A stretch of 43,989 bases of DNA, from the IMG/VR virus record IMGVR_UViG_3300036670_000255, positions 1 through 43,989 of that record; one strand, given 5' to 3'. Positions within the stretch are counted from its first letter, which is position 1. Each line of letters opens with the position of its first letter. The position numbers and the translations under genes were made by a program. The notes beneath the pieces were generated by a model, which did not search any database, was not told where the DNA came from, and worked only from the letters and a program-made list of their open reading frames with translations. Below, in pieces: positions 3,086-42,264 of this stretch. The DNA is from a virus.

Positions 3086-3277
3086 ATGTCCAGCAAATAC
3101 AGTAAAAAGTTGCCTGCTCCCAATAACAATACGGCGCAGAAGTTTCACCGACCTTACATCACAGCTGTCCGTGGTAAACCCACTTGTACCAACTGTGGTA
3201 GCAGCACATCTCCCATCAGCAGCACACACTCAAAATGCTCATGCGGTGGAACCTACCAAACATTCAGCATCAAATAA
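3086..3277 (+). CDS. Small zinc-ribbon-like protein of unknown function
   Basis: 63 residues with a cysteine arrangement CTNCG ... CSCGG in the C-terminal half (C-x2-C ... C-x-C), suggesting a small zinc ribbon. The N-terminal half is basic (KYSKKLP). A GGAG-containing Shine-Dalgarno lies about 9 bases before the ATG, and a sigma70 promoter sits 30 bases upstream, which supports a real early gene. No specific family is recognised; small zinc-ribbon proteins in phages are often anti-host or transcription factors, but nothing here shows that. Confidence 0.55.
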   Translation: MSSKYSKKLPAPNNNTAQKFHRPYITAVRGKPTCTNCGSSTSPISSTHSKCSCGGTYQTFSIK

Positions 3278-20056: not shown

Positions 20057-20545
20057 GCAGCTAATATGCAGATGTGGTACAGAGTTCCATGCGACCGGGT
20101 CAACTAGCAAGTTTTGCTCAGTTCTCACAGTGTGGGAAACTGACTATAAACAAAATAAAGAAAAAGTGATTCAAGAATGCATAAACTTTCTGACCAAATA
20201 GAACGGAAGTTCACTGATGTGATTCCATTAAATGAATGGGACATTTTGACTGATACCGGTTGGGCTCCATTGGTGGACATAAAACAAACCATCAAATATG
20301 AAGTCTATGACCTGGAGTTGGCCAACGGTTATAAATTATCAGGGGCAGACACACATATTATGTTTGATGCCAATCTAGACGAGGTATTTATTAAGGATCT
20401 CATCATTGGGTCAGTGGTTATAACAGATGCAGGCCCAGTCAATGTATCGATGATTAGACAGACTGGTGAATCACAGCATATGTACGATGTAGGGGTTGAT
20501 TCCGAGAATCATAGATTCTACTCCAATGGTATACTCAGCCACAAT
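19904..20545 (+). mobile_element. Intein in the gp17 Walker A motif, in non-continuous reading frames
   Basis: Starts with Cys1 (19904) and ends with SHN (20545) before Thr+1. Block A is in the first frame; a zinc-ribbon-like piece (CRCGTEF...SKFC, 20064-20117) lies in another frame (19983-20201); then the first frame again carries KYEVYDLELANG, block B ADTHIMFD (near 20351) and the C-terminal blocks DSENHRFYSNGILSHN. The protein reads through if one A is removed near 20045-20048 and one is added near 20173-20177. The break between blocks A and B is the same position at which the known AceL-TerL and related atypical split inteins are divided. No LAGLIDADG or HNH domain is visible inside. Confidence 0.8.
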
Positions 20546-30983: not shown

Positions 30984-32210
30984 ATGCAGAAAAAAAACGT
31001 ATATCTGTTCTATCCGCCAGGCTATCATGGTTCTTATATAACCTGGGCATTATCCATATCTGATTATCATAGTGCTGGCACCACAGTGAAAAATCCAGTG
31101 AATACCACCAATTCCATATCACATGGAGGAGTTGGGACCAGTCATTTACATGTACGTGCACCCACTCATCAGGGACTGGATGAAAACTTCATATGGCAAC
31201 ACTATAATCAGCTGGGAATTGATGATCGCCGGTGCTATGTATGCAACATGAGTGATGAACCGTCAAATATCAAGGATTTTATCAGTGTGTGGTCCAGGGA
31301 CCCAACTGCTGTGTGTATCGTGTTGCATGCGAACAATGACCCAATTTTGGAGTCGTATCTAAATATTAATTGCGTGACCAAATGGCCAACTTTTTTAGCT
31401 GCCACACTGAATCTCAAGTATGGATCACAGGTTCGGTTATCTGATCAGGACCGTGATGACATCAAATCAATAGATTTTTTCAACTGTACTCACAGCCTAC
31501 TACTGAGAAATTTAATTGTGCGACATGCGAATCTACTAGGATTAAAAACCCCAGTGGCACTGGATCAATTACAGGATAGGTTGGACCATCGGACTGCATG
31601 GGTTAACCTGCGACATGAATGCCAGCCGCACGAGGTGGACACCAGCACATATGCAGACAGTCACTCAGTGGATCTCAAACATTCGTTTATACAACTATCT
31701 GCGTTGGATGTGGTGTCTTCAAACTTTCCGGATATTCTACAGCAATTACTGGACACCACTGGCATCAGCGATAACTTTAATTTGGATCAATTGAGAAAAA
31801 TACATCCAGAATACATGGCCGCTCAACCAAATTTACAGTGGTTTACTTCCTTTGCCCACTGGGAGTTGACTGGGCAGTTGGATACTTTTTTAACTGGGCA
31901 CATGGCAGTTCAGGCACAACTGATCAAGCATATATTTAAAAATTCTGGGATGGGCACACTGGATACAAACTGGGTTAACTCATACCGTGCAGTACGGGCA
32001 GCACACTGGCCAGAGGTAATTGATTCATACGACTTCCATGGTCTAGAAGAATACATGAAAGAAAATCTAATGGTCAGGGGTGTGCAACCCCCGGCGGGCA
32101 AACCACCAGAGCCCAACATGCTGCAAATGTACAGAGATCACAGCTGGCAAGCCATGTCACTGGACGAAATAAATTTAGTGTATCAAACCAATAAAACCAT
32201 TGACACATAA
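30984..32210 (+). CDS. Hypothetical protein, sulfotransferase-like N-terminus
   Basis: 408 residues. It opens with VYLFYPPGYHGSYITWALS, a strand followed by a Gly/His/Ser turn that resembles the PAPS-binding loop of sulfotransferase-like P-loop proteins, but the remaining family motifs are not clear. The C-terminal half contains many His/Trp residues (HWELTGQLDTFL, AVRAAHWPEVI). The stop lies 51 bases upstream of the first tRNA. No domain is assigned with confidence; it may act on a virion or surface glycan like the putative glycosyltransferase at 23809. Confidence 0.65.
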   Translation: MQKKNVYLFYPPGYHGSYITWALSISDYHSAGTTVKNPVNTTNSISHGGVGTSHLHVRAPTHQGLDENFIWQHYNQLGIDDRRCYVCNMSDEPSNIKDFISVWSRDPTAVCIVLHANNDPILESYLNINCVTKWPTFLAATLNLKYGSQVRLSDQDRDDIKSIDFFNCTHSLLLRNLIVRHANLLGLKTPVALDQLQDRLDHRTAWVNLRHECQPHEVDTSTYADSHSVDLKHSFIQLSALDVVSSNFPDILQQLLDTTGISDNFNLDQLRKIHPEYMAAQPNLQWFTSFAHWELTGQLDTFLTGHMAVQAQLIKHIFKNSGMGTLDTNWVNSYRAVRAAHWPEVIDSYDFHGLEEYMKENLMVRGVQPPAGKPPEPNMLQMYRDHSWQAMSLDEINLVYQTNKTIDT

Positions 32211-32260
32211 TGCAATTTCATATAGAATAAACACATGGACAGAAAAAACAACTGTTATAT

Positions 32261-32335
32261 CCGGTGTTCGTTCAATGGACAGGACAGCTTTCTCCTAAAG
32301 AGCCAATGTAGGTTCGATTCCTATACACCGGACCA
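32261..32335 (+). tRNA. tRNA-Arg(CCT)
   Basis: Acceptor CCGGTGT/ACACCGG, D-stem GTTC/GGAC, anticodon stem GCTTT/AGAGC with loop CTCCTAA (anticodon CCT), T-loop TTCGATT; CCA encoded. First gene of the array. Confidence 0.9.
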
Positions 32336-32361
32336 GGGCTTAAATATAATTACTGGATAGT

Positions 32362-32390
32362 TTGACTAATAATTATATTTAAACTATACT
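32362..32390 (+). promoter_or_regulatory. Sigma70-type promoter
   Basis: TTGACT, 17-base AT-rich spacer, TATACT. Confidence 0.6.
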
Positions 32391-32432
32391 GATATTCAAT
32401 TGTTTTTAACATTTATACAAGCTAATAAATAT

Positions 32433-32461
32433 TTGACAGTTAAATAAATTTAACTTATAAT
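32433..32461 (+). promoter_or_regulatory. Consensus sigma70 promoter of the tRNA region
   Basis: TTGACA, 17-base spacer, TATAAT. The spacer GTTAAATAAATTTAACT is shared almost base for base with the promoters at 32568 and 35325. A short frame MQQLEGWDD (32524-32553) lies downstream. Confidence 0.8.
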
Positions 32462-32523
32462 ATAGAATAAATAATTAGGTATTAACGCAAGTAAGTACAA
32501 AATAATTTTTGATTGGTAAATAT

Positions 32524-32553
32524 ATGCAACAATTAGAAGGATGGGATGATTAA
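32524..32553 (+). other. Nine-codon ORF ending in the EGWD motif
   Basis: Reads MQQLEGWDD then TAA. Its last 14 bases (AGAAGGATGGGATG) and following TTAAA recur at the end of the 54-residue ORF at 32681, which ends EGWDG. No clear ribosome site. The surrounding stretch 32336-32680 holds no larger gene, only three promoters. Confidence 0.35.
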
Positions 32554-32567
32554 AGGTCACCAGCAAG

Positions 32568-32596
32568 TTGACAGTTAATTAAATTTAACTTATACT
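32568..32596 (+). promoter_or_regulatory. Consensus sigma70 promoter
   Basis: TTGACA, 17-base spacer (GTTAATTAAATTTAACT), TATACT. Drives the 54-residue ORF at 32681. Confidence 0.78.
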
Positions 32597-32680
32597 AATG
32601 ATAACAGTGAATAACACGGCAATTTTGCTGTATATTCATAGATATTTAAAAGAAAAGATAAATAAATATAGTAACACATT

Positions 32681-32845
32681 ATGAAAAACTTTACAGTCAT
32701 TAAGAATTCACAGCAACCACATGCATGCATGCCGTTATGGCAATCAGAAGGTATGGGTCTTGCGGCGGAATCTACCCCGGTAATTGATAATACCATTAAT
32801 GGCAGAAGTTATAGTGTCAGGGTTCGAGAAGGATGGGATGGTTAA
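32681..32845 (+). CDS. Small protein of unknown function ending EGWDG
   Basis: 54 residues (starts MKNFTVIKNSQQ, ends VRVREGWDG). It is flanked by a consensus promoter 85 bases upstream and a terminator 20 bases downstream, so it forms its own transcription unit inside the tRNA array. Small phage early proteins with a conserved acidic/Trp C-terminus often bind a host factor, but no family is recognised. The C-terminal EGWD motif is repeated in the mini-ORF at 32524. Confidence 0.6.
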   Translation: MKNFTVIKNSQQPHACMPLWQSEGMGLAAESTPVIDNTINGRSYSVRVREGWDG

Positions 32846-32865
32846 ACATTTCCATAAACTTTAAG

Positions 32866-32898
32866 AACCCTAGCACTAAACAAGTCCTAGGGTTTTTT
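32866..32898 (+). terminator. Rho-independent terminator
   Basis: AACCCTAG pairs with CTAGGGTT across 13 bases, followed by TTTT. Confidence 0.85.
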
Positions 32899-32899
32899 C

Positions 32900-33073
32900 A
32901 TGTGTTCCACAAGGAATAACAAGATTAGTAAGAAAATTAAACAGCAAGAGCAATGGACTTCACAGTTCACGCTAACACAGGAACAGCTTAACCGCATGTT
33001 ACAGGAAAAGTTAGATCGGACGAAGCAGTACAGTTTGGGCGCCCAGCGTCTGGAAAATTTGCGTCTTGCATGA
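32900..33073 (+). CDS. Small basic hypothetical protein
   Basis: 57 residues, rich in Gln, Lys and Arg (KISKKIKQQEQW, LTQEQLNRMLQEKLDR), likely a helical hairpin. The ATG lies within the U-tract of the preceding terminator and there is no good ribosome site, so the start or the gene itself is uncertain. Confidence 0.4.
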   Translation: MCSTRNNKISKKIKQQEQWTSQFTLTQEQLNRMLQEKLDRTKQYSLGAQRLENLRLA

Positions 33074-33216
33074 AGTGAAAAAGTGCGTGGGTAACGAGGA
33101 CCATCCCCAGGGATAACACCGCACTCTAAATATGTTGTAAACGGGCGTATCTGGGGCATAAAATTCATGCTGATAACATGAAGAGTCAGAACCAGGTTAG
33201 GGTAAAACCCTAACAT

Positions 33217-33245
33217 AATCAGTTGCTGCTTCACAGCGACTGGTT
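33217..33245 (+). other. 12-bp hairpin upstream of the second tRNA block
   Basis: AATCAGTTGCTG and CAGCGACTGGTT pair over 12 positions (three G-T) around CTTCA, followed by ATTTTAAAAC; a second inverted repeat (ATTTTAAAACA / TGTTTTAAAAT) follows at 33246-33281. Terminator or processing signal. The stretch 33074-33216 contains no gene I can support. Confidence 0.5.
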
Positions 33246-33284
33246 ATTTTAAAACATATTTGTATCAGTGTGTTTTAAAATAAT

Positions 33285-33361
33285 GGTCAGGTAGTATTAT
33301 GGGAAATACGCTATCTTCATAAGATAGAAAGAAGAGAGTTCGAATCTCCCCCAGACCACCA
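33285..33361 (+). tRNA. tRNA-Met(CAT), elongator or Ile2
   Basis: Anticodon stem CTATC/GATAG with loop TTCATAA; D-stem GTAT/ATAC; T-loop TTCGAAT; CCA encoded. Acceptor GGTCAGG/CCAGACC has one A-A mismatch. CAT could be Met or lysidine-modified Ile. Confidence 0.82.
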
Positions 33362-33370
33362 AAGTTTATT

Positions 33371-33455
33371 GGAGATGGAAAGCTGATGGCTTCAGCAACG
33401 AGTCTGTAAAACTCGTCTTTTATCGGGAGTGGATCGAAACCACACATCTCCACCA
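33371..33455 (+). tRNA. tRNA-Tyr(GTA)
   Basis: Acceptor GGAGATG/CATCTCC, anticodon stem CGAGT/ACTCG, loop CTGTAAA (GTA), long class II variable arm, CCA encoded. Confidence 0.88.
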
Positions 33456-33457
33456 GT

Positions 33458-33531
33458 GCATCTGTAGTTTAATGGTCAAACAGCGGATTTCCAATCCTCA
33501 GTTGAGAGTTCGATTCTCTCCAGATGCTCCA
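33458..33531 (+). tRNA. tRNA-Gly(TCC)
   Basis: Acceptor GCATCTG/CAGATGC, anticodon loop TTTCCAA (TCC), T-stem GAGAG/CTCTC, CCA encoded. A second Gly(TCC) lies at 37555. Confidence 0.88.
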
Positions 33532-33537
33532 TATATT

Positions 33538-33612
33538 GCATTCTTAGCTCAGAGGCGGAGCAGCGCCGTTACATGGCGAAGGTCGAGATTTCAAAATTCT
33601 CAGAATGCACCA
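33538..33612 (+). tRNA. tRNA-Val(TAC)
   Basis: Acceptor GCATTCT/AGAATGC, D-stem GCTC/GAGC, anticodon loop GTTACAT (TAC) on CGCC/GGCG, CCA encoded; T-arm is degenerate (T-T at its last pair). Confidence 0.82.
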
Positions 33613-33617
33613 GTTAT

Positions 33618-33691
33618 CTCCGTGTAGTGAAATGACATCACTCTGCGTTTGGGACGCAGTAGCGCAGGTTTGATTCCTGCCACGGAGACCA
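33618..33691 (+). tRNA. tRNA-Pro(TGG)
   Basis: Acceptor CTCCGTG/CACGGAG, D-stem GTGA/TCAC, anticodon CTGCG/CGCAG with loop TTTGGGA (TGG), CCA encoded. Confidence 0.88.
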
Positions 33692-33697
33692 GGATCA

Positions 33698-33771
33698 GCG
33701 TGGTTAGTTTAATGGTAAAATATCACATTGCCAATGTGATGTCAGGAGCTCGATTCTCCTACCCCGCACCA
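33698..33771 (+). tRNA. tRNA-Gly(GCC)
   Basis: Anticodon stem TCACA/TGTGA, loop TTGCCAA (GCC); acceptor GCGTGGT/ACCCCGC with one mismatch; CCA encoded. Confidence 0.87.
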
Positions 33772-33781
33772 AATATTATCA

Positions 33782-33866
33782 GTGGGTATGGAGAAATTGG
33801 TTAGACCCAGTAGACTTAAAATCTACCGCCTGGTGCATGCTGGTTCGAGTCCAGTTACCCACACCA
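33782..33866 (+). tRNA. tRNA-Leu(TAA)
   Basis: Acceptor GTGGGTA/TACCCAC, anticodon GTAGA/TCTAC with loop CTTAAAA (TAA), class II variable arm, CCA encoded. Confidence 0.88.
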
Positions 33867-33875
33867 GTTTTATAC

Positions 33876-33947
33876 ACCGTGATAGCTCTCTGGGAGAGCC
33901 ACACACTGTCCATGTGTTGTAGGCGGGTTCGATTCCCGTTCACGGTG
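33876..33947 (+). tRNA. tRNA-Asp(GTC)
   Basis: Acceptor ACCGTGA/TCACGGT with discriminator G, D-stem GCTC/GAGC, anticodon ACACA/TGTGT with loop CTGTCCA (GTC). No CCA encoded (CCC follows). Confidence 0.87.
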
Positions 33948-33978
33948 CCCTTGAGTTTGCGCTTTTAGCGTCGAACTA

Positions 33979-33986
33979 TATAAATA
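33979..33986 (+). promoter_or_regulatory. T4-type late promoter for the GIY-YIG gene in the array
   Basis: Exact TATAAATA, 27 bases before ATG 34014, with AAGAAG between. Confidence 0.65.
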
Positions 33987-34013
33987 AACATAAGAAGAAC
34001 TATTAAGATACTT

Positions 34014-34736
34014 ATGTTTTATTTAATTTACAAAATAACCAATATTGTTAACAACAAAATTTATATAGGTTCCCATAGGACCAAAAATAAAAATGACAAG
34101 TATATGGGGTCTGGTAAATATCTAAATTATGCTATTAAAAAGCACGGCTTAGATAAGTTTACAAAAGAAATTCTATTTGAATTTGACAACGCTAAAGATA
34201 TGTATAGTAAAGAAGCAGAAATCGTAAATGACGATTTTTTATCTGATGAAAATACATATAATTTAAAGAGAGGTGGCTCTGGCGGATTTGATTACATTAA
34301 CTCAAGAGGGCTAGCAATGAACTCTGAGCACGGCAAATTAGGAGCAATCAGAACTAATGAGTTAAGAAAATCTGACCCAATTCTAGATAAAAAATTAAAA
34401 GATGTTTCTGCTGCAAATCTCAAAGCAGCACACAAGGCTGGTCTTATCAAATACGATACTTTTACTGGTAAGAATCATTCTCCCGAATCTAAGAAAAAAA
34501 TAGGAGAAGCAAACAGTAATAATCGAGGTATTAAAAATTCTCAATTTGGTACTATATGGATTACAAATGGTATTGAAAATAAAAAAATAAAATCAGATCT
34601 TTCCATCCCAGATGGGTGGTATAAAGGTCGCAAGTTTCGGGGAATTAGCTCATTTGGGAGAGCGACGGATTTGCAATTCGTAGGTGATCAGTTCGAAACT
34701 GATATTCTCCACCAAGTCATTACCGGACCGGCGTAA
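34014..34736 (+). CDS. GIY-YIG homing endonuclease overlapping a tRNA gene
   Basis: 240 residues. GIY-YIG domain at the start (FYLIYKITNIVNNKIYIGSH, 2-21), GSGKYLNYAIKKHG, catalytic Glu context SKEAEIV, then basic NUMOD-like helices (NHSPESKKKIGEAN). From about residue 209 on the frame runs through the tRNA-Ala gene at 34639-34714, so the C-terminal 30 or so residues are tRNA sequence read as protein. AT-rich and free of the CAGTG word that fills the phage genes, which suggests recent entry. Free-standing nucleases of this type usually cut in or beside the tRNA genes they flank. Confidence 0.82.
   Translation: MFYLIYKITNIVNNKIYIGSHRTKNKNDKYMGSGKYLNYAIKKHGLDKFTKEILFEFDNAKDMYSKEAEIVNDDFLSDENTYNLKRGGSGGFDYINSRGLAMNSEHGKLGAIRTNELRKSDPILDKKLKDVSAANLKAAHKAGLIKYDTFTGKNHSPESKKKIGEANSNNRGIKNSQFGTIWITNGIENKKIKSDLSIPDGWYKGRKFRGISSFGRATDLQFVGDQFETDILHQVITGPA
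34639..34714 (+). tRNA. tRNA-Ala(TGC), inside the 3' end of the GIY-YIG ORF
   Basis: Acceptor GGGGAAT/ATTCTCC, D-stem GCTC/GAGC, anticodon ACGGA/TTCGT with loop TTTGCAA (TGC), T-stem ATCAG/CTGAT, CCA encoded. Fully overlapped by the nuclease reading frame. The stretch 34715-34836 that follows has no gene I can support. Confidence 0.87.
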
Positions 34737-34836
34737 CCCGGGATGTATTGCAGACGAAATGATCAGTGTACTGCGGTATGCCTGCATAGGCTGGAGTGGA
34801 AGGACCACAATGCAACAGGTTTTTTAAGCATTATAC

Positions 34837-34910
34837 TGGGGGTTAGTTAAATGGTATAACCGCGGATTTTGATTCCGCTGTTGCAAGTTCGATTCTTGCA
34901 CCCTCTGCCA
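34837..34910 (+). tRNA. tRNA-Gln(TTG)
   Basis: Anticodon GCGGA/TCCGC with loop TTTTGAT (TTG), discriminator G, CCA encoded; acceptor TGGGGGT/ACCCTCT with T-T at the end, in line with the weak first pair of tRNA-Gln. Confidence 0.85.
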
Positions 34911-35039
34911 ATTTTTACGTGGGCTGTGGATCCTGTCAAGAACTGGGTTCACACCTGTCGCAGTATTAATCTAGGTTGATTACCACTGACATGAATTAAA
35001 AATAATCATTGCTCAGTGGACCAAACTAAATACTACAAT

Positions 35040-35124
35040 GGAAGACTCCCGTAACAGTATTGAAGTGACTTGCTGGGCCCTTGGTCAGTTAAATGACTTT
35101 GCGGTTTGAGTCAGTGGTCTTCCG
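35040..35124 (+). pseudogene. Degenerate tRNA-like relic (class II)
   Basis: GGAAGAC at 35040 pairs perfectly with GTCTTCC at 35117; TGACT/GGTCA could be an anticodon stem but with a 12-base loop, and the T-arm does not close. Looks like a decayed Ser- or Leu-type tRNA. The flanking 34911-35039 has no other gene. Confidence 0.4.
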
Positions 35125-35133
35125 ACAAATACA

Positions 35134-35207
35134 GCCCCTCTAGTTAAATGGTATAACTCCTGTTTAGTAATCAGGCATCGGCAGTTCGATTCTGTCGAGG
35201 GGCACCA
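35134..35207 (+). tRNA. tRNA-Thr(AGT)
   Basis: Acceptor GCCCCTC/GAGGGGC, D-stem GTTA/TAAC, anticodon loop TTAGTAA (AGT), T-loop TTCGATT, CCA encoded. Clearly a paralogue of the Thr(TGT) gene at 36145; the first anticodon base differs (A for T). Confidence 0.85.
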
Positions 35208-35226
35208 ACGTGATGAGAACTTGGGT

Positions 35227-35297
35227 GTGGCCATAACTTAATGGCAAAGTCGTGGATTGTGATTCCGCTTATCTGAGTTCAATTCTCAGTGGCCACC
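35227..35297 (+). tRNA. tRNA-His(GTG)
   Basis: Acceptor GTGGCCA/TGGCCAC, discriminator C (typical of His), anticodon GTGGA/TCCGC with loop TTGTGAT (GTG), T-stem CTGAG/CTCAG. No CCA. Flanks AACTTGGG and CCCAAGTT extend the acceptor helix. Confidence 0.87.
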
Positions 35298-35324
35298 CCC
35301 AAGTTTTCCACCAGGGCACTGTAT

Positions 35325-35353
35325 TCGACAGTTAATTAAATTTAAGTTATAAT
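35325..35353 (+). promoter_or_regulatory. Sigma70 promoter of a short RNA
   Basis: TCGACA, 17-base spacer GTTAATTAAATTTAAGT, TATAAT; nearly identical to the promoters at 32433 and 32568. Confidence 0.75.
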
Positions 35354-35359
35354 AAACAC

Positions 35360-35437
35360 ATGGCAGCAGGAAAGCAACACGATAAGTAACCAACAGGTAT
35401 TTGAACTAATCAATTTGAGGATCCCCCAAATTGTTTT
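35360..35437 (+). ncRNA. Putative small RNA with own promoter and terminator
   Basis: Expected start about 7 bases after the -10 box at 35348-35353; ends in the terminator at 35411. About 78 nt. Its only reading frame is a nine-codon MAAGKQHDK that begins at the transcription start. Function unknown. Confidence 0.45.
35411..35437 (+). terminator. Terminator of the short RNA
   Basis: CAATTTG pairs with CAAATTG, extended by GG/CC, followed by TTTT. Confidence 0.75.
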
Positions 35438-35446
35438 AAATAATGC

Positions 35447-35475
35447 TTTACTTATATTAGGTTTAATGCTATAAT
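35447..35475 (+). promoter_or_regulatory. Sigma70-type promoter before the three-hairpin RNA
   Basis: TTTACT, 17-base spacer, TATAAT, preceding the hairpin block by about 60 bases. Confidence 0.6.
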
Positions 35476-35536
35476 GTATGCATACCAACTAACCATCGTG
35501 TTATTTGGCAGGTTCTTTAACAACTAATAGTAACTA

Positions 35537-35648
35537 CCTTGTATGGTACAAGGGGTTATATTCAACGCCATTGGCCGTCGGACCCTGAAACTGTCCCACG
35601 CCATCAGTGCAGCGTTGAATATAATTACCAGAATTAATAACTCTGGTA
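35537..35648 (+). ncRNA. Three-stem structured RNA
   Basis: Three adjacent hairpins: CCTTGTA-TGG-TACAAGG (35537-35553); a 13-bp stem TTATATTCAACGC/GCGTTGAATATAA (35556-35568 with 35612-35624) enclosing a second irregular stem with GGAC/GTCC; and TACCAGA/TCTGGTA (35626-35648). It is not a tRNA and encodes no protein. T4 has two stable non-tRNA RNAs (species 1 and 2) in its tRNA cluster; this could be an analogue. Confidence 0.6.
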
Positions 35649-35675
35649 TTATTTGCGGGAGTCATGACCCGTGGA

Positions 35676-35750
35676 ACTCGGGTGGTCCAATAGTCAAGAC
35701 ATATCCTCTAGTAGGGATAGATGGTAGTTGCAAATCTACCCCCAATGAGT
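35676..35750 (+). pseudogene. Cloverleaf-like relic
   Basis: Four arms can be drawn: ACTCGGG with CCC(AAT)GAGT, D-like GTC/GAC, TATCC/GGATA with an 8-base loop TCTAGTAG, and GGTAG/CTACC with loop TTGCAAAT. The bulged acceptor and 8-base loops make a working tRNA doubtful. Confidence 0.35.
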
Positions 35751-35884
35751 TCGCATGTTAACGTATATTTCCTGAGTCGGTATCACTACTGGCATGTCAC
35801 GCACCATGGAGTTTGATTCATGGGAATAACAGTATATTTTAACATGCTAAATGAAATATTGATAATGCAAGTTAAAAGGATAAG

Positions 35885-35940
35885 AGCAGATACTGGTATT
35901 TGATCCCAGGTGGGAAGAAGTATCGCCGTTAGTATCTGCT
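35885..35940 (+). other. 10-bp stem with inner hairpin before tRNA-Ser
   Basis: AGCAGATACT (35885-35894) pairs perfectly with AGTATCTGCT (35931-35940); the 36-base interior contains CCCA/TGGG. Possibly a processing signal or relic. Confidence 0.45.
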
Positions 35941-35949
35941 GCGTTTTAT

Positions 35950-36036
35950 GGAGAGTTGGCCGAGCGGCAAGGCAATGGATTGCTAATCCATCACTGGGCA
36001 ACCGGTGGATAGGTTCGACTCCTATACTCTCCACCA
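35950..36036 (+). tRNA. tRNA-Ser(GCT)
   Basis: Acceptor GGAGAGT/ACTCTCC, anticodon ATGGA/TCCAT with loop TTGCTAA (GCT), long variable arm, T-loop TTCGACT, CCA encoded. Confidence 0.9.
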
Positions 36037-36061
36037 TATTTAAGATACATACTGTTATTTG

Positions 36062-36137
36062 ATCTCTATACGTCAATGGATCAGACTACCCGTCTTCGAA
36101 ACCGGTAATCCAGGTTCGAGTCCTGGTAGAGATACCA
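36062..36137 (+). tRNA. tRNA-Arg(TCG)
   Basis: Acceptor ATCTCTA/TAGAGAT, D-stem GTC/GAC, anticodon loop CTTCGAA (TCG) on CCCGT/ACCGG, T-stem CCAGG/CCTGG, CCA encoded. Confidence 0.85.
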
Positions 36138-36144
36138 CATTTTT

Positions 36145-36218
36145 GCCCCTCTAGTTAAGTGATATAACACCTGTTTTGTAATCAGGTATCGGCAGTTTGA
36201 TTCTGTCGAGGGGCACCA
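36145..36218 (+). tRNA. tRNA-Thr(TGT)
   Basis: Acceptor GCCCCTC/GAGGGGC, anticodon loop TTTGTAA (TGT), T-loop TTTGATT, CCA encoded. Paralogue of Thr(AGT) at 35134. Confidence 0.87.
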
Positions 36219-36238
36219 CAATCATCGTGACACATATA

Positions 36239-36309
36239 GTTGGCCTGACGGAGAAGTTAGGCACTAGTCTGCAAAACTGGCAAGATGGGAGCGTTACCCG
36301 TGGCCAACT
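36239..36309 (+). tRNA. tRNA-Cys(GCA)
   Basis: Acceptor GTTGGCC/GGCCAAC, anticodon CTAGT/ACTGG with loop CTGCAAA (GCA), no CCA. D- and T-arms are weak. Flanking CACATATA/TACATGTG lengthen the acceptor helix with one mismatch. Confidence 0.75.
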
Positions 36310-36340
36310 ACATGTGACCTATGATCCAGCAAAAGAAAAA

Positions 36341-36414
36341 ATCTCTATAGTTTAAAGGAAGAACACCGGCCTTTCACGTCGGCGATGCGATGTCAGGATT
36401 CGCTAGAGATACCA
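36341..36414 (+). tRNA. tRNA-Glu(TTC)
   Basis: Acceptor ATCTCTA/TAGAGAT, D-stem GTTT/GAAC, anticodon CCGGC/GTCGG with loop CTTTCAC (TTC), CCA encoded; T-loop atypical (GTCAGGA). Confidence 0.78.
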
Positions 36415-36421
36415 AATTTAT

Positions 36422-36451
36422 TCCCTTGTAGCTCAGTTGGTAGAGCACACC
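36422..36451 (+). pseudogene. 5' half of a broken tRNA (Asn-like)
   Basis: Acceptor TCCCTTG, TA, D-arm GCTC-AGTTGGTA-GAGC identical to the D-arm of tRNA-Asn(ATT) at 38301, then it breaks off at the anticodon stem. The matching acceptor strand CAAGGGA-G-CCA is 840 bases away at 37292-37302. Confidence 0.6.
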
Positions 36452-36467
36452 ATAAATTTAGTTTTAT

Positions 36468-36550
36468 TCCACGAGAGCCGCCGGGTGTGGCAGCAGACTG
36501 TTAATCTGTGTCGAAAGACTAGCTGGGTTCGAGTCCTAGTCGTGGAGCCA
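36468..36550 (+). tRNA. tRNA-Asn(GTT) with a long variable arm
   Basis: Acceptor TCCACGA/TCGTGGA, discriminator G, anticodon GCAGA/TCTGT with loop CTGTTAA (GTT), CCA encoded. The variable arm holds a GTC-GAAA-GAC hairpin, unusual for Asn. Nested between two halves of a broken tRNA. Confidence 0.78.
36512..36533 (+). repeat. Direct repeat, copy 1 (22 identical bases; copy 2 at 37264-37285)
   Basis: Covers the variable arm and T-loop start of tRNA-Asn. The ACTGTT anticodon segment lies exactly 15 bases upstream in both copies, and GGAGCCATTGA follows in both. Confidence 0.9.
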
Positions 36551-36552
36551 TT

Positions 36553-36560
36553 GATAAATA
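36553..36560 (+). promoter_or_regulatory. Late promoter variant 5 nt before a start codon
   Basis: GATAAATA, five bases before ATG 36566 of the HNH gene, no Shine-Dalgarno. Confidence 0.5.
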
Positions 36561-36565
36561 TCTAT

Positions 36566-37195
36566 ATGTATAAATGTATAGAATGTAGTAAATCTTTTGC
36601 CAGTATTATGGCACTAACTGGGCACAAAAGGATGCACGGAGGATCACAGGGCAAATCTAAAAAAATAGTTTGTTCTTGTTTGATTACTAGAAAAATAATG
36701 CCGTACCAGTATTTGGATCAATATCAATCAAAGTTAATTGGATGTAAACAATGTAGTAAGTTGTTTAATCCGACCGTAAATAGAACAACTTTTTGTTCTC
36801 AATCTTGTTCTGCTACTTGTAACAATACGATTCGACCCAAACGATTGAAGAAGGAAAAGCCTCCTAAAATTGTAAAAGAAAAGAAAGTGTATACTGAGCA
36901 GGAGAAGAAAGCGAAAAATGTTTCGGCAGTACAAGCATATAGGGCTAGGAAATATAGTGCAACTTTACCTAGTACTGATCGTAAACTTATTAACAAGATA
37001 TACGAAAGATGTCCTAAAGGATATGAAGTTGATCATATAATTGCACTAGCCGAAGGCGGTGCTCATCACCAAGACAATTTGCAATATCTTCCTGCTATGG
37101 AAAATAGAAGAAAGAATAGAACACAGAATTATAATAAAGATCTTGCAATACGTTGGGAAATCAGTTCTATTGGGGAATTGCCTAGTCCGGTCTAA
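36566..37195 (+). CDS. HNH homing endonuclease with C2H2 zinc finger
   Basis: 209 residues from ATG 36566; the open frame extends upstream only through the tRNA. An N-terminal C2H2 finger (C4, C7, H20, H24), a second CKQCSKLF...FCSQSC zinc element, a basic linker, and a C-terminal HNH: CPKGYEVDHIIALAEGGAHH, DNLQYL, ENRRKN. AT-rich with essentially none of the CAGTG words typical of the phage. It lies between the halves of a broken tRNA-Asn and follows an intact tRNA-Asn. Confidence 0.82.
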   Translation: MYKCIECSKSFASIMALTGHKRMHGGSQGKSKKIVCSCLITRKIMPYQYLDQYQSKLIGCKQCSKLFNPTVNRTTFCSQSCSATCNNTIRPKRLKKEKPPKIVKEKKVYTEQEKKAKNVSAVQAYRARKYSATLPSTDRKLINKIYERCPKGYEVDHIIALAEGGAHHQDNLQYLPAMENRRKNRTQNYNKDLAIRWEISSIGELPSPV

Positions 37196-37248
37196 GGCAA
37201 CGGTCTTAGGCGGACCCTTAAACCTCCCTGCCTACATAGTAGGTGGAA

Positions 37249-37302
37249 ACTGTTGGAACTACACGAAAGACTAGCTGGGTTCGAGCCGAGTCAAGGGAGC
37301 CA
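37249..37302 (+). pseudogene. 3' half of a broken tRNA-Asn, with repeat copy 2
   Basis: Begins ACTGTT (anticodon GTT), contains repeat copy 2 (37264-37285) and ends CAAGGGA-G-CCA, which pairs over 7 bp with TCCCTTG at 36422-36428. The T-stem no longer pairs. The rest of 37196-37474 holds no gene. Confidence 0.6.
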
Positions 37303-37474
37303 TTGAATCATGGAGCAACACGGTGTAATACCTGTGTTCCCAATCAAGTTTTGTATATGAGCCCGAAGATTGAGGGAGCCTTACGTGGGCGACAGACGAT
37401 TGAAATGATCTCCATATGCGCCAATTTTGTTATTTTGCACATTGTGCCAGGAGATAGAGTGCTACAATAATATT

Positions 37475-37548
37475 ACCAGTGTAATTCAATGATAGAATAA
37501 TCGACTGATAATCGATCTACGAAAGTTTGATTCTTTCCACTGGTACCA
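37475..37548 (+). tRNA. tRNA-Ile(GAT)
   Basis: Acceptor ACCAGTG/CACTGGT, D-stem ATTC/GAAT, anticodon ATCGA/TCGAT with loop CTGATAA (GAT), T-stem GAAAG/CTTTC, CCA encoded. Confidence 0.88.
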
Positions 37549-37554
37549 GGTTAT

Positions 37555-37626
37555 GCGGACTGTCAAAGGAGTACATCTGGCCTTCCAAGCCGGAACAGAG
37601 GATTTCGATCATCCTAGTCCGCTCCA
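37555..37626 (+). tRNA. tRNA-Gly(TCC), second copy
   Basis: Acceptor GCGGACT/AGTCCGC, anticodon CTGGC/GCCGG with loop CTTCCAA (TCC), T-stem AGGAT/ATCCT, CCA encoded. D-arm is short (TGT/ACA). Confidence 0.78.
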
Positions 37627-37632
37627 GTTTTT

Positions 37633-37706
37633 AGGCTTGACATGAACTGTGTTCATGCTGTTATGACATGACAGTTTAGGCAGTTAGATTCTGCACTAGC
37701 CCACCA
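37633..37706 (+). tRNA. tRNA-Val(GAC), degenerate
   Basis: Anticodon CTGTT/GACAG with loop ATGACAT (GAC), D-hairpin ATGAA/TTCAT, CCA encoded; the acceptor AGGCTTG/CTAGCCC has two mismatches and the T-loop is TTAGATT. May be inactive. Confidence 0.5.
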
Positions 37707-37797
37707 AGTTTTGTTAGCCCTAACAAATTTAGTTTATTCTCAGATCTAGATATTTTGATCAGCATGCACCAGCTGCATAAACACGTTGGATTACCAT

Positions 37798-38310
37798 ATG
37801 AAAATTTGCCCTAAGTGCAATGCGGGACACGAAAAGTCTGGAAAATACTGTTGTAGAAGTTGTGCCAATAGCAGAATATTTACCACGGAGGCCAAAGAAA
37901 AAAAACGAAATAAATCGTTATCATTTTGGTCACAGTATAATGCAGATGAAAGAAAAGAACTCCATAAAGAAAAGATGGGGTTATACGACTTTGATCATCA
38001 TCAAAAACAAGTACAACAGGCAAATAGGATGAGGGAGTGGAGTAAGCCCTACGAGGAAATGAGTCATCCGTCAGTTCGTAAAAGACTATTGCATGAACGA
38101 AACTACATCTGCGAAGAATGTGGTACAGGTAATACATATAACGGAAAGCCGCTAAGTCTAGAACTAGACCACAAAGACGGAAATAGTAAGAATAACAAAA
38201 TTGAAAATTTAAGAATACTTTGCCCTAACTGTCATTCACAAACTCCGACACATAGAGGAAAGAATATTAAATACAAAAGGTTGTTATTAGATAAGAATAT
38301 TGGCACATAG
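37798..38310 (+). CDS. HNH endonuclease ending inside tRNA-Asn(ATT)
   Basis: 170 residues from ATG 37798. An N-terminal CPKCNAGHEKSGKYCCRSC zinc ribbon, a basic helical middle, and a C-terminal zinc HNH: CEECGTG, LELDHKDGNSKNNKIENL, RILCPNCHSQTP. The stop codon TAG is the T8-A9-G10 of the following tRNA-Asn(ATT), so the gene abuts its likely target. AT-rich and lacking the CAGTG word, hence probably a recent arrival. Confidence 0.85.
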   Translation: MKICPKCNAGHEKSGKYCCRSCANSRIFTTEAKEKKRNKSLSFWSQYNADERKELHKEKMGLYDFDHHQKQVQQANRMREWSKPYEEMSHPSVRKRLLHERNYICEECGTGNTYNGKPLSLELDHKDGNSKNNKIENLRILCPNCHSQTPTHRGKNIKYKRLLLDKNIGT

Positions 38311-38376
38311 CTCAGTTGGTAGAGCGTTCGGTTATTAACCGAAATGTCCCTGGTTCGAGCCCAGGTTTGCCAGCCA
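38301..38376 (+). tRNA. tRNA-Asn(ATT)
   Basis: D-arm GCTC-AGTTGGTA-GAGC, anticodon TTCGG/CCGAA with loop TTATTAA (ATT), T-stem CCTGG/CCAGG, discriminator G, CCA encoded; acceptor TGGCACA/TTTGCCA with one mismatch. A34 is rare for Asn. Confidence 0.82.
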
Positions 38377-38459
38377 AATATATTACTCATGGGCCAGGTT
38401 CAGTGTAACCAGTCAGCAGAGGTCCTGGCACCAGGACTCCTGGAAAGTATTTAAAATTA

Positions 38460-38533
38460 CGCGGGTAGTGTGGCCAACAATCCAGTCTCATAAGCTAGGA
38501 TCATCGGGGGTTCGAATCCCTCACCCGCAACCA
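38460..38533 (+). tRNA. tRNA-Met(CAT), initiator-like
   Basis: Acceptor CGCGGGT/ACCCGCA with an unpaired C1-A72 as in bacterial initiator tRNA, loop CTCATAA (CAT), CCA encoded. It lacks the three G-C pairs in the anticodon stem that initiators have, so role is uncertain. Two hairpins without gene lie at 38385-38445. Confidence 0.75.
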
Positions 38534-38538
38534 TATAT

Positions 38539-38622
38539 GGAATATAGCAACGCTGGGCGTTAGACGGCTTTGAATACCGTGCCACTGGTGAAACGGTGAT
38601 AGTTCGATTCTATTATATTCCT
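38539..38622 (+). tRNA. tRNA-Ser(TGA)
   Basis: Acceptor GGAATAT/ATATTCC, D-hairpin AACGC-TGG-GCGTT, loop TTTGAAT (TGA), long variable arm, T-loop TTCGATT. No CCA; next tRNA starts two bases later. Confidence 0.82.
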
Positions 38623-38624
38623 CC

Positions 38625-38711
38625 GAAAGATAGAGAGCCTGGGGCTCCGGCAACTTGGAAAGTTGTTCCACTCTGCAAGGGGTGATGGTTCGATTCCATT
38701 ATTTTTCACCA
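38625..38711 (+). tRNA. tRNA-Ser(GGA)
   Basis: Acceptor GAAAGAT/ATTTTTC, D-hairpin GAGCC-TGG-GGCTC, anticodon GCAAC/GTTGT with loop TTGGAAA (GGA), long variable arm, CCA encoded. Confidence 0.83.
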
Positions 38712-38718
38712 AACTTCA

Positions 38719-38793
38719 GGGTGATTCATCTAATTGGCAGGATCACGGTCTCCAACACCGTTTGTCTGGGTTCAAGTCCCAGGTCGCCCGCCA
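38719..38793 (+). tRNA. tRNA-Trp(CCA)
   Basis: Acceptor GGGTGAT/GTCGCCC, anticodon ACGGT/ACCGT with loop CTCCAAC (CCA), T-stem CTGGG/CCCAG, discriminator G, CCA encoded. Confidence 0.88.
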
Positions 38794-38838
38794 GTACATG
38801 CACAATTTAGTGCAATTGCGCAGTGATTATACAGTTAG

Positions 38839-38846
38839 TATAAATA
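38839..38846 (+). promoter_or_regulatory. T4-type late promoter for the lipoprotein gene
   Basis: Exact TATAAATA, 42 bases before ATG 38889; AAGGA ribosome site lies 7 bases before the ATG. Confidence 0.68.
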
Positions 38847-38888
38847 CTGATAGCATGTTACATACATGCGTTTAAACAAGGAAAAATT

Positions 38889-39065
38889 ATGTACAAAGCA
38901 ATTATCGTCGCAGTCATGGCCACGGCCACCCTGGGTTTAGCAGCATGCTCGGGTTTCAATGAATCACCAGAACAGGTGCAGTTTAAAAAATTCCAGGCAG
39001 AATGCAAAGCCAATCCATCCAGTGCTGCATGTGTTGAATACGCAAATAGCAAAAAAGAGCATTAA
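38889..39065 (+). CDS. Small phage lipoprotein
   Basis: 58 residues. A typical lipoprotein signal: MYK, a hydrophobic stretch (AIIVAVMATATLG), then lipobox LAAC with Cys20, cleaved by signal peptidase II. The mature part is 39 residues and polar with two further Cys. Late promoter and a good ribosome site precede it. Candidates are an o-spanin (Rz1-like), though it lacks the proline richness of Rz1, or a superinfection-blocking lipoprotein like T5 Llp. It would sit in the host outer or inner membrane. Followed by a strong hairpin. Confidence 0.72.
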   Translation: MYKAIIVAVMATATLGLAACSGFNESPEQVQFKKFQAECKANPSSAACVEYANSKKEH

Positions 39066-39084
39066 TCACTGGCGTAGGTCATGA

Positions 39085-39109
39085 AATTGCTGCAAATTTT
39101 GCAGCAATT
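39085..39109. terminator. Hairpin between convergent genes
   Basis: AATTGCTGCAA-ATT-TTGCAGCAATT, an 11-bp perfect stem separating the lipoprotein and radical SAM genes. U-tract is short. Confidence 0.7.
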
Positions 39110-39126
39110 CCTACCTGTGCAGTGTA

Positions 39127-40209
39127 TTAGTTGAATATTAATTGATATAATACTGGGTCAACATCAATTAATTTAATTGGTCGAATCTCTTGTAATGGGG
39201 CAATATACTCTGCTAATTTTTGCTTGGATCCGGGAATTACATTGGAACCATAGGCCGCAAACACTGCTCCCATGCCGCATGCATCATAACTGGCCTTGTC
39301 TCCGAAAATAGCAGTATCTCCGTCCCAGTGTACTGGTGACATATATGCTGGGTATTCGAGTATTGAATAACTAATCTTAATATCCTGCCCGGCAAAGTAT
39401 TGAACAATGTCAGGAAAATACATGGAATTAAATACACTTATTGTAATATGTGCCTGCAGGTAGTTAATCACTGTTTTGTAAAAATTTAAATTTTTAACTG
39501 CATTTCCCCAATCAGCACCGTACCTGGTCCAAGAAATTTTCTCATCCACCTGGTCCAGGCTGGCAATCAATGACAGGTGACCCCATTTATAATCAGTGAG
39601 TAATTTTTTAAATTCTTTGCTTATAGTATGGCAATTGGTTGTGACCTCTAACCAAGTACGCTGATGTAGTCCCAACTCCACTAGTTCATACAAAAAAGAA
39701 ATAATTTTCTTGTTGATAGTGGGTTCGCCGCCCAGTAGACCTAACAGTATGGTATCATGATGATTATAACTTTCAATTATTGTTTCTCTCAGTGCCAGTA
39801 ATGGGTCAGTGGTGTCCAGTGGGTATACACTGATATTAATTCTCTTTTTGTCATCCTGAATCCTGGAGCTACGACTCTCGTCACAACTCCAGCAGGCTAA
39901 ATTGCATAAATTACTCAAATTCAGCTGATATCTATCAGGAAATTTACTAATAGGTGCAGGTAATATATCCATACGATAACTATGACCCTGTAGTTTTTCG
40001 TTATTTGTACATGATATACACTGTGAGGGCAACTTGTCTCCACTAAGATCTGATCGTAAATTAGTCATTTCTGGGCCAGACCACCAATCATTAAATGTAT
40101 CATACCGGTAACTTTTAAATGGCTTGAATGCGCAACATGCTCGATACCCCCCGTCTGGGGTAGTGAATACTTGCCTATAGGGTACATAACAGAGAGTTTT
40201 TATGGTCAT
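39127..40209 (-). CDS. Radical SAM protein (twitch-type)
   Basis: 360 residues from ATG 40209, chosen because GATAAATA sits 4 bases upstream in the pattern seen elsewhere; an in-frame ATG at 40245 is the alternative. The radical SAM cluster motif is C102-x3-C106-x2-C109 (NLCNLACWSC), with GGEPT at 160-164 for SAM binding. Before it, RACCAF (C25-C26) and QCISC (C64, C67) form a Cys-rich N-terminal region that may bind an auxiliary Fe-S cluster. Phages carry such twitch-domain radical SAM enzymes without known substrates. It lies between tRNA genes and shares the region with an oxygenase and a cysteine desulfurase that could feed its clusters. Confidence 0.8.
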   Translation of the reverse strand: MTIKTLCYVPYRQVFTTPDGGYRACCAFKPFKSYRYDTFNDWWSGPEMTNLRSDLSGDKLPSQCISCTNNEKLQGHSYRMDILPAPISKFPDRYQLNLSNLCNLACWSCDESRSSRIQDDKKRINISVYPLDTTDPLLALRETIIESYNHHDTILLGLLGGEPTINKKIISFLYELVELGLHQRTWLEVTTNCHTISKEFKKLLTDYKWGHLSLIASLDQVDEKISWTRYGADWGNAVKNLNFYKTVINYLQAHITISVFNSMYFPDIVQYFAGQDIKISYSILEYPAYMSPVHWDGDTAIFGDKASYDACGMGAVFAAYGSNVIPGSKQKLAEYIAPLQEIRPIKLIDVDPVLYQLIFN

Positions 40210-40213
40210 GTTG

Positions 40214-40221
40214 TATTTATC
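40214..40221 (-). promoter_or_regulatory. Late promoter variant 4 nt before a start codon
   Basis: Minus strand GATAAATA, four bases (CAAC) before ATG 40209. Confidence 0.5.
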
Positions 40222-40272
40222 ACTATAAATTAATGTCGTGCGCATGGTGTAGTTTGTTCCAATATAATTTTA

Positions 40273-40350
40273 GCCCTCGTAACCCAATTGGTATGAGGTA
40301 CTTCGCTTAGAACGAAGGTCGTGCAGGTTCGAATCCAGCCGAGGGCACCA
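40273..40350 (+). tRNA. tRNA with anticodon TAG (Leu), short variable arm
   Basis: Acceptor GCCCTCG/CGAGGGC, anticodon CTTCG/CGAAG with loop CTTAGAA (TAG), T-loop TTCGAAT, CCA encoded. Leu tRNAs normally have a long variable arm; this one is short, so identity by anticodon alone. Separated from the main array. Confidence 0.78.
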
Positions 40351-40442
40351 TATTATGGTAAATAATATAATTCTGGATTTATCAACATAAATACGTACAG
40401 TGGCTAGTACTAACCATCACATATATTCAAATCGGAAATTCA

Positions 40443-41117
40443 ATGAAACAACACCTGCTATGGAGCACAATTGAGCTAGCTAGTCCACCAGAATGGTTAG
40501 CTGCTGAGGCATTACAAACTTTTAGTAGTCGCGATCAGGGAGTATATCAAGGAGTGCACGAAACAAATAATTGGAAAAAATCCAGCACACACCGTCAACT
40601 AACAATGAAGGATGGCAGTGTGGAAAAATGTGCATTTATACATACTTCTATTCTTAGTCACCACAGTAGTAATTGGGCTAGACTTGCATTGTCACTTGAC
40701 AATCATGTGGAAATTGATGTACGATCAGCAGTCACAGTACCAGGGAATAATAACGGTGGCCCGCACCGTGACTATTCCAGGAACTATATACTAATTTATG
40801 TATTCAATGCAGGAAGTGATGATCAGCGTACTGTATTTTATCGGGATTCACGTGGTGCCCCCATATCAGTCCCATTGGCTGAATCGGTGGACCGATACTC
40901 AAAGGGGACAGTGGAGGGGACACACTTTTTCAATGATTTTGGGCCACTTGACATAATTGAAGAAGCCAAATTTCCAGTGGGACAATGGGTAATAATGAAC
41001 GGGACAGTATTACATAGCATTACCAATGTGATGCAAGGTAGAAAGACATTGCAGATCAGTTTAGATTATTTGCCCGATTCCCTAAAACTGCTGAATCCGA
41101 TCTATTATACAGAGTAA
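40443..41117 (+). CDS. 2OG-Fe(II) oxygenase-like protein
   Basis: 224 residues. The Fe(II) facial triad is visible: H108-R-D110 in GGPHRDYSRNY, H191 in GTVLHSITNV, and R200 (GRKTLQIS) placed to bind 2-oxoglutarate. The double-stranded beta-helix strands around them fit (YILIYVFNAG, GQWVIMNGTVL). Phages have many such enzymes, acting on DNA, proteins or metabolites; the substrate is not evident. A CATAAATA late-type motif lies 50 bases upstream. It is followed by a short gap and the convergent ADP-ribosyltransferase-like gene. Confidence 0.72.
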   Translation: MKQHLLWSTIELASPPEWLAAEALQTFSSRDQGVYQGVHETNNWKKSSTHRQLTMKDGSVEKCAFIHTSILSHHSSNWARLALSLDNHVEIDVRSAVTVPGNNNGGPHRDYSRNYILIYVFNAGSDDQRTVFYRDSRGAPISVPLAESVDRYSKGTVEGTHFFNDFGPLDIIEEAKFPVGQWVIMNGTVLHSITNVMQGRKTLQISLDYLPDSLKLLNPIYYTE

Positions 41118-42142: not shown

Positions 42143-42264
42143 ATGGTAACTCAGGTACCGTCTGGTCATATAATAATTATTCACATGGATATAACCGTTA
42201 TGCTGGATACTTTGGCTAAATATTATCTCAGGGCAGTGCAGTGCTCTGCAACTCAAGAAACTCA

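What the first reader, a model, noticed from the sequence alone, without database searches (positions are those of the whole stretch)
35447..35648. Promoter-driven three-hairpin RNA in the tRNA array
A sigma70-like promoter is followed by three consecutive stems, the middle one 13 bp perfect with a further inner stem. It codes for nothing and is not a tRNA. The order (small hairpin, long stem, hairpin) suggests a stable RNA, comparable in position to the unexplained T4 species 1 and 2 RNAs.
Basis: partly seen in the sequence, partly recalled or inferred. Interest (0 to 1): 0.7.

Follow-up and report, generated by a model that had tools for sequence, protein, structure and literature searches.

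The report
Stem-clamped RNAs between phage tRNAs

Summary
The anatomy is real, but "a three-hairpin RNA" is the wrong unit. The middle hairpin (E3, 35554-35626) is the significant part (MFE z -5.2); promoter and small-hairpin counts match chance. E3 has no Rfam, INPHARED or protein match. Tracing its architecture through related phages exposed a family: an 18-bp clamp (typically CCATAT..AAACACAUU/AGUGUGUUU..AUAUGG) around a variable interior, on the tRNA strand, starting at the CCA of one tRNA and ending at the 5' end of the next. In 9 loci it is the intervening sequence of a permuted tmRNA. The clamp covaries (14 of 18 pairs change on both sides); 158 interiors form 103 clusters. A cultured cyanophage, BUCT-ZZ01, carries four copies. 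The window has an empty copy (33244-33283, E 1.9e-6), a probable member (35753-35847, E 0.011) and E3 (model E 0.58, inconclusive). An E3-arm pattern nevertheless retrieved 10 family members among 11 hits. Most likely these RNAs are released by tRNA end-processing; what the interiors do is unknown. Ro60/Y-RNA and T4 species 1/2 membership were tested and not met.

The parts
35447..35475 (+). sigma70-like promoter with TG (TTTACT-17-TATAAT); could start a transcript near 35482; use unproven
   Evidence: 10/12; 13 sites found vs 10.4 expected; 28-nt stretch 92.9% identical to a Krischvirus stretch annotated as promoter in GEC-3S, E 0.2, not significant
35537..35553 (+). small hairpin CCTTGTATGGTACAAGG, probably incidental
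35554..35626 (+). 5' arm GGTTATATTCAACGC + core CATT (35569-35572); 3' core AGTG (35606-35609) + 2-nt bulge + GCGTTGAATATAATT; interior 35573-35605
   Evidence: z -5.2; R2 15.3 bits, E 0.58 over 44 kb; core at that place in 14 of 200000 interior shuffles; E3-arm pattern retrieves 10 family members among 11 hits
35626..35648 (+). small hairpin TACCAGA..TCTGGTA, probably incidental
35753..35847 (+). E5: probable member (GCATGTTAACGTATATT..AGTATATTTTAACATGC), with an interior containing GTTTGATTC (T-arm-like by eye)
   Evidence: R2 22.7 bits, E 0.011 over 44 kb, filters off; R1 16.0 bits; z -3.4
33244..33283 (+). empty member: full clamp with a 6-nt loop, ending 1 nt before tRNA-Met 33285
   Evidence: R2 38.8 bits, E 1.9e-6 over 44 kb; R1 35.9 bits, E 1.9e-5 over 869 kb; z -6.2
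35885..35940 (+). E6: 13-bp stem AGCAGATACTGGT..GTTAGTATCTGCT, 9 nt before tRNA-Ser; the family models do not match it
36231..36316 (+). E7: 15-bp stem with a tRNA-like interior (anticodon-arm-like CTAGT CTGCAAA ACTGG by eye); not matched by the family models
   Evidence: score 32 vs shuffle max 29 of 40; best tRNA alignment 35 vs shuffled max 34, hardly above chance

Best explanation
E3 is a diverged copy of a phage RNA element made of a near-constant 18-bp clamp stem around an exchangeable structured insert. The family sits between the mature 3' CCA of one tRNA (or permuted tmRNA piece) and the mature 5' end of the next. It is transcribed with the tRNAs; the enzymes that make tRNA ends cut at its two borders, and the clamp holds the released ends together, giving a stable small RNA. 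Shown here: the family, its covariation, strand, position, its identity with permuted-tmRNA intervening sequences, and structure conserved inside some inserts. Inferred: E3's membership (about 0.8); transcription and excision (about 0.6); that the insert acts in trans, for example as a decoy, rather than being a passenger of a processing stem (about 0.4).
For: Family: 166 merged places from model R1; 152 on the strand of tRNAs within 400 nt, 0 opposite, 14 without such tRNAs; start at tRNA end -2 (the CCA) in 74, end at next tRNA -1 in 30. Covariation: 95.9% of cells paired vs 76.8% shuffled; 159 double changes vs 40.6; sliding the partner drops pairing to 30-55%. RNA rather than DNA: 43 G-U against 7 A-C on the sense strand. 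Nine permuted tmRNAs have the element as intervening sequence, 1-2 nt after CCA. Relatives chosen without the motif: 10 of 12 arrays carry it, 8 of 10 leaving out two used to build R1. Isolate BUCT-ZZ01, in neither model: 4 copies. Insert structure: mean z -0.51, n 154, and covarying inner helices within clusters. E3.
Against: No transcript data. E3's model score is not significant (E 0.58); it carries a 2-nt bulge, does not abut a tRNA (254 nt from tRNA-His, 323 from tRNA-Ser), and its interior has no detected relative. The E3-arm pattern was written after seeing the family. Two of 12 relatives' arrays gave no hit. An empty copy exists, so the insert may be dispensable. No nuclease or binding partner is identified.
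Confidence: 0.55

Rival explanations
1. The clamp alone is the function: a processing stem (for example an RNase III-type substrate of about 18-20 bp) that separates neighbouring tRNAs or the two pieces of a permuted tmRNA; inserts are passengers.
For: Clamp conserved in sequence, orientation and register while inserts differ (103 clusters of 158); empty copies in the window and L386; place in tmRNA intervening sequences.
Against: Inserts within clusters keep covarying helices and fold slightly better than shuffles; many tRNA neighbours in the same arrays are 5-10 nt apart and have no such stem.
Confidence: 0.25
2. A DNA-level inverted repeat: a mobile or recombination element, or homing site, that merely lies among tRNAs.
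For: Same insert at non-equivalent sites (L279 between tRNAs, L323 in a tmRNA); near-palindromic arms; homing endonuclease genes in the array.
Against: Always on the tRNA strand (152 vs 0) and G-U far above A-C on that strand; precise register with mature RNA ends.
Confidence: 0.08
3. A Y RNA: clamp bound by a phage or host Ro60/Rsr, insert acting as the tRNA-like effector.
For: 13 of 113 elements hold a T-arm against 1.65 expected; in three (L258, L304, L315) it lies at the 5' side, and in L258 and L304 a D-arm-like stretch follows it (by eye); a TROVE gene lies in the tRNA array of Rhizobium phage RHph_TM30.
Against: TROVE PF05731 in 0 of 49 element-carrying contigs, including records of 364, 261, 172, 168, 162 and 160 kb; RHph_TM30 itself rang as control but has no element.
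Confidence: 0.05
4. E3 is an unrelated chance hairpin or tRNA relic in decaying spacer DNA, whatever the family is elsewhere.
For: R2 E 0.58; the best stem in this 650-nt gap is within the shuffle range; a neighbouring stretch (35038-35124) is a degenerate tRNA-Ser.
Against: z -5.2; core pairs at the family position in 14 of 200000 shuffles; E3-arm pattern pulls out the family; E5 close by and an empty copy in the same array.
Confidence: 0.15

Closest known systems
Intervening sequence of permuted (two-piece) tmRNA, Rfam RF04321/RF01849/RF01850
   Same: In 9 loci the element is that intervening sequence, between CCA and the tmRNA 5' end
   Different: The same clamp also separates ordinary tRNAs; RF04321 describes only the tRNA-like domain (PMC11915505, passages seen), and no Rfam family covers the element where it lies between tRNAs. 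In BUCT-ZZ01 the element lies just upstream of the tmRNA, not in its intervening sequence
T4 species 1 and 2 RNAs (rnaC, rnaD)
   Same: Stable non-tRNA RNAs in a T4 tRNA cluster; rnaD is 1 nt from tRNA-Arg
   Different: 119-139 nt, no long terminal stem, no model hit
GOLLD and ROOL RNAs
   Same: Structured RNAs of phages near tRNA islands, function unknown (PMC12286853, passages seen); GOLLD lies in L323 13 nt upstream of an element
   Different: Hundreds of nt, no clamp-and-insert design; no hit in the window
Bacterial Y RNAs (YrlA) with Ro60/Rsr
   Same: End-to-end stem with a tRNA-like module (recalled)
   Different: No TROVE protein in 49 carrier contigs; most inserts show no T-arm

Membership tests
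Clamp family defined here (models R1, R2) | 18-bp clamp with core CAUU/AGUG (U.G wobble) matched by the covariance model | tested here: inconclusive
   E3: R2 15.3 bits, E 0.58 over 44 kb; E5: E 0.011; 33244-33283: E 1.9e-6
Clamp family defined here (models R1, R2) | Core pairs YAUU/AGUR directly inside the stem | tested here: met
   E3 has CATTG/CAGTG, with a 2-nt bulge on the 3' side; 14 of 200000 shuffles; folded so
Clamp family defined here (models R1, R2) | Arms start at a tRNA CCA and end at the next tRNA | tested here: not met
   E3 is 254 and 323 nt from the nearest tRNAs; the position is not universal in the family either (74 of 166 start at a CCA)
Clamp family defined here (models R1, R2) | Same strand as the tRNAs | tested here: met
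   All window tRNAs are +; E3 scores higher on + by only 0.6 bits, so weak
T4 species 1/2 RNA | Terminal structure of rnaC/rnaD shared with the element | tested here: not met
Y RNA | Partner Ro60/TROVE protein in the genome | tested here: not met
   0 of 49 carrier contigs, most of them fragments; window itself not tested
Y RNA | Binding of the stem by Ro60 | not testable with these tools
   none
GOLLD / ROOL / any Rfam 15 family | Covariance-model match at E3 | tested here: not met
   (E up to 10 over 32000-41000)

The most novel reading that the evidence does not exclude
Phages use the joints between tRNAs, and the gap of permuted tmRNAs, as docking sites for a modular RNA system: a conserved clamp recognised in the precursor releases interchangeable structured RNAs, many of them distinct, some built from tRNA parts in normal or permuted order, which act against host defences or in translation control. 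The clamp would be to these RNAs roughly what an integron site is to gene cassettes.
Probability: 0.3. Interest if true: 0.9.

Novelty: categorically new. Interest (0 to 1): 0.78.

Why it matters
Phage tRNA arrays are usually read as lists of tRNAs. A widespread, covarying element placed with base precision between mature tRNA ends, and inside permuted tmRNAs, means that part of these arrays codes for another class of RNA. No Rfam 15 family matched it in the stretches scanned, apart from the permuted tmRNAs that contain it, and it was not found in ten full-text searches of the open-licence library. Because a cultured phage on a laboratory cyanobacterium carries four copies, it can be tested at once.

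Tried and rejected
Rejected: Rfam family; tRNA or pseudo-tRNA reading of E3's interior (best 20 vs shuffled max 27); protein-coding; nucleotide relatives in INPHARED; Ro60/Y RNA; T4 species 1/2; a general bacterial processing motif: 7 stretches among about 85,000 genomes, where chance alone would give a handful (my estimate), of which L383 (8 places) and L385 match the model well.

Led nowhere: proteins 40443-41117 and 30984-32210 found no viral relatives; the first stem pattern TTCAACGC..GCGTTGAA was too loose; named jumbo phages Atu_ph07, Phosso, CBB, GAP32, XbC2 and XaC1 gave no model hit (stricter filters). E1 (34715-34836) aligned weakly to an L344 spacer RNA (28 vs shuffled max 25) but does not share its closing stem.

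Choices that affect counts: pattern scans stopped at 120 rows, so family size is a lower bound. A1 holds 60 of the 71 representatives; A3 holds 49 of the 52 references (L323:871-973, L296:3761-3862 and L260:4852-4927 left out because their arms are in a shifted register). Outer pairing was partly selected for; the inner N-N' pair (84 of 97 paired) was not. The strand of each place is that of the better model score.

Full report
What is in the window. The record is a 43,989-base virus fragment with a T4-type terminase, tail sheath and RecA-like recombinase. A tRNA array runs from 32261 to 40350, all on the + strand: 22 tRNAs by ARAGORN, and two more by Rfam only, at 36341 and 37475. Only the middle element stands out clearly (z -5.2, 0 of 200). 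Promoter-like and terminator-like site counts in the neighbourhood match shuffles, and the best stem in the 650-nt gap is within the shuffle range, so the case had to be made by comparison.

How the family came up. E3 has no nucleotide relative in INPHARED. Relatives of the window's UvsX led to contigs with tRNA arrays. Scanning them for long stems showed elements of 87-123 nt with 18-20-bp closing stems beside tRNAs, several sharing CACAU..AGUGUG. Of 98 distinct elements with at least 6 further outer pairs, 53 have the motif exactly 6 nt after a tRNA 3' end; the upstream tRNA is Lys(ttt) in 29 of the 55 lying within 8 nt of a tRNA. Among 202 spacers of 45-180 nt, all 39 with the motif beat 20 of 20 shuffles, and so do 36 of 163 without it (about 8 expected). 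The latter include clamps of other sequence in the same register.

Covariation. On 60 elements, one per insert cluster (A1), 95.3% of stem cells pair against 85.3% in shuffles. On 49 elements chosen for different arms (A3) it is 95.9% against 76.8%, with 14 of 18 pairs changed on both sides and 159 double changes against 40.6; sliding the partner by 1-3 columns gives 30-55%. These sets were picked with pairing in view, so the least biased number is the pair just inside the motif: 84 of 97 paired, as AT 43, TA 15, GC 12, CG 9 and 5 wobbles. A U.G wobble is kept in 37 of 49. On the sense strand G-U exceeds A-C 43 to 7, leaving out columns 8 and 16, as expected for RNA read on the tRNA strand.

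Position. Of 166 merged places, 152 lie on the strand of tRNAs within 400 nt, 0 on the other, and 14 have none that near; 74 begin at the tRNA's own CCA and 30 end at the first bases of the next tRNA. Some stand in tandem 3-4 nt apart. In nine loci (L277, L288, L296, L323, L324, L361, L362, L364, L367) the element is the intervening sequence of a permuted tmRNA, starting 1-2 nt after its CCA. I gave eleven loci; 8 had a permuted tmRNA, and L323 came. In L288 the pattern matched the other strand, but the arms also read as a clamp on the tmRNA strand. ARAGORN spans in L268 and L315 also cover elements.

Unselected relatives. Contigs chosen by proteins, not by motif, with at least three tRNAs: L135/L203, L142/L204, L151/L202, L161/L205, L167/L206, L192/L208, L403, L412, L423, L424, L426, L427. 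Ten of 12 have an R1 hit at E<=0.01; L203 and L206 do not. L202 and L205 contributed to R1; without them it is 8 of 10. The isolate BUCT-ZZ01 contributed to no model and has four places (E 4e-6 to 1e-3 over its 156 kb). Two of them fill the gap between tRNA-Lys(ttt) and tRNA-Met; one precedes tRNA-Tyr; one lies just 5' of a permuted tmRNA.

The inserts. 158 distinct inserts fall into 103 clusters; the largest has 7 members. Within clusters inner helices covary, visible in the alignments. MFE z averages -0.51 (n 154, t -5.9). 13 of 113 hold a tRNA T-arm against 1.65 in shuffles. Two of those, L258 and L304, have a T-arm before a D-arm-like stretch (read by eye). Inserts can be absent: window 33244-33283 is a full clamp with a 6-nt loop one base before tRNA-Met.

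Is E3 a member? By model R2 it is inconclusive: 15.3 bits, E 0.58 over the window, only the outer 10 pairs aligned. In the same search 33244-33283 scores E 1.9e-6 and 35753-35847 E 0.011; the three best places in 44 kb all lie in the array, E3 third. For E3: outer pairs AUAUUCAA/UUGAAUAU, then three G-C pairs, a 2-nt bulge, and the core CAUUG/CAGUG with the U.G wobble, folded so by energy alone. Such a core at that place arises in 14 of 200000 shuffles of the interior. A pattern made of E3's outer arms and core, with the middle three bases free, hit 11 IMG/VR stretches. Ten have a middle triplet that pairs and lie in contigs with tRNAs; 7 start right after a tRNA and end 5 nt before the next. 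The pattern was written with the family in view, but its fixed letters are all E3's. Against: E3 abuts no tRNA, and its insert has no relative.

How it may work. The register with mature ends makes release by tRNA end-processing the simplest reading, and permuted tmRNA transcripts are known to be cleaved by tRNA processing enzymes (PMC11915505, passages seen). Whether the insert or the clamp is the point is open. Covarying inserts argue for the former, empty copies for the latter. Passages of PMC12282133 report very abundant unannotated RNAs next to the tRNA genes of a Listeria phage and a putative Rsr protein there; this shows that RNAs of such regions can be abundant, not that they are of this family.

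Ro60 test. Rhizobium phage RHph_TM30 has a TROVE gene in its tRNA array, which made Y RNA worth testing. PF05731 rang in 0 of 49 carrier contigs and only in RHph_TM30, given as control. Many contigs are fragments; a host Ro60 is not excluded.

Novelty. Judged for the family, not for E3 alone: no Rfam match in the stretches scanned other than the tmRNAs that contain it, no description in ten searches of the open-licence library (listed under Why it matters). Subscription journals and preprints were not searched, so an existing description is possible.

Noticed in passing
window 35038-35124: Degenerate tRNA-Ser(gct) missed by ARAGORN and Rfam: local score 71 against tRNA-Ser of L282, shuffled max 29; anticodon and T stems look broken.
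   Followed up: partly
window 35215-35308: tRNA-His sits on a further stem of about 12 bp beyond its acceptor and encodes no CCA; its sequence is close to the L339 tRNA-His (score 118).
   Followed up: partly
L287 5857-6009, L335 6658-6807, L344 2848-3000: A second, longer spacer RNA (about 150 nt) between tRNA-Glu and tRNA-Lys or tRNA-Leu, with its own long stem (GTTTAGTGTTATC/GATAACACTAAAC) and a covarying inner hairpin.
   Followed up: partly
window 36341-36411 and 37475-37545: Two tRNAs found by Rfam (44.3 and 65.4 bits) but not by ARAGORN; 37264-37306 also resembles the 3' part of tRNA-Asn 36468-36550.
   Followed up: no
window 34014-34736, 36437-37195, 37786-38310: GIY-YIG and HNH endonuclease genes inside the tRNA array.
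   Followed up: no
window 42241-43527 and 39127-40245: A cysteine-desulfurase-like aminotransferase (Aminotran_5, 285 bits) and a radical SAM/SPASM protein beside the array.
   Followed up: no
window 19655-21859: Terminase large subunit in two frames with an intein-like boundary (SHNT), read by eye.
   Followed up: no
L444 10970-12538: TROVE/Ro60-domain gene between two tRNA-Leu genes in Rhizobium phage RHph_TM30.
   Followed up: partly
L323 2633-3098: GOLLD RNA (202 bits) in the same phage tRNA array, 13 nt upstream of an element at 3111-3182.
   Followed up: no
L383: A 4.9-kb contig binned as Planctomycetia carries 8 model places, partly in tandem; probably phage DNA.
   Followed up: no
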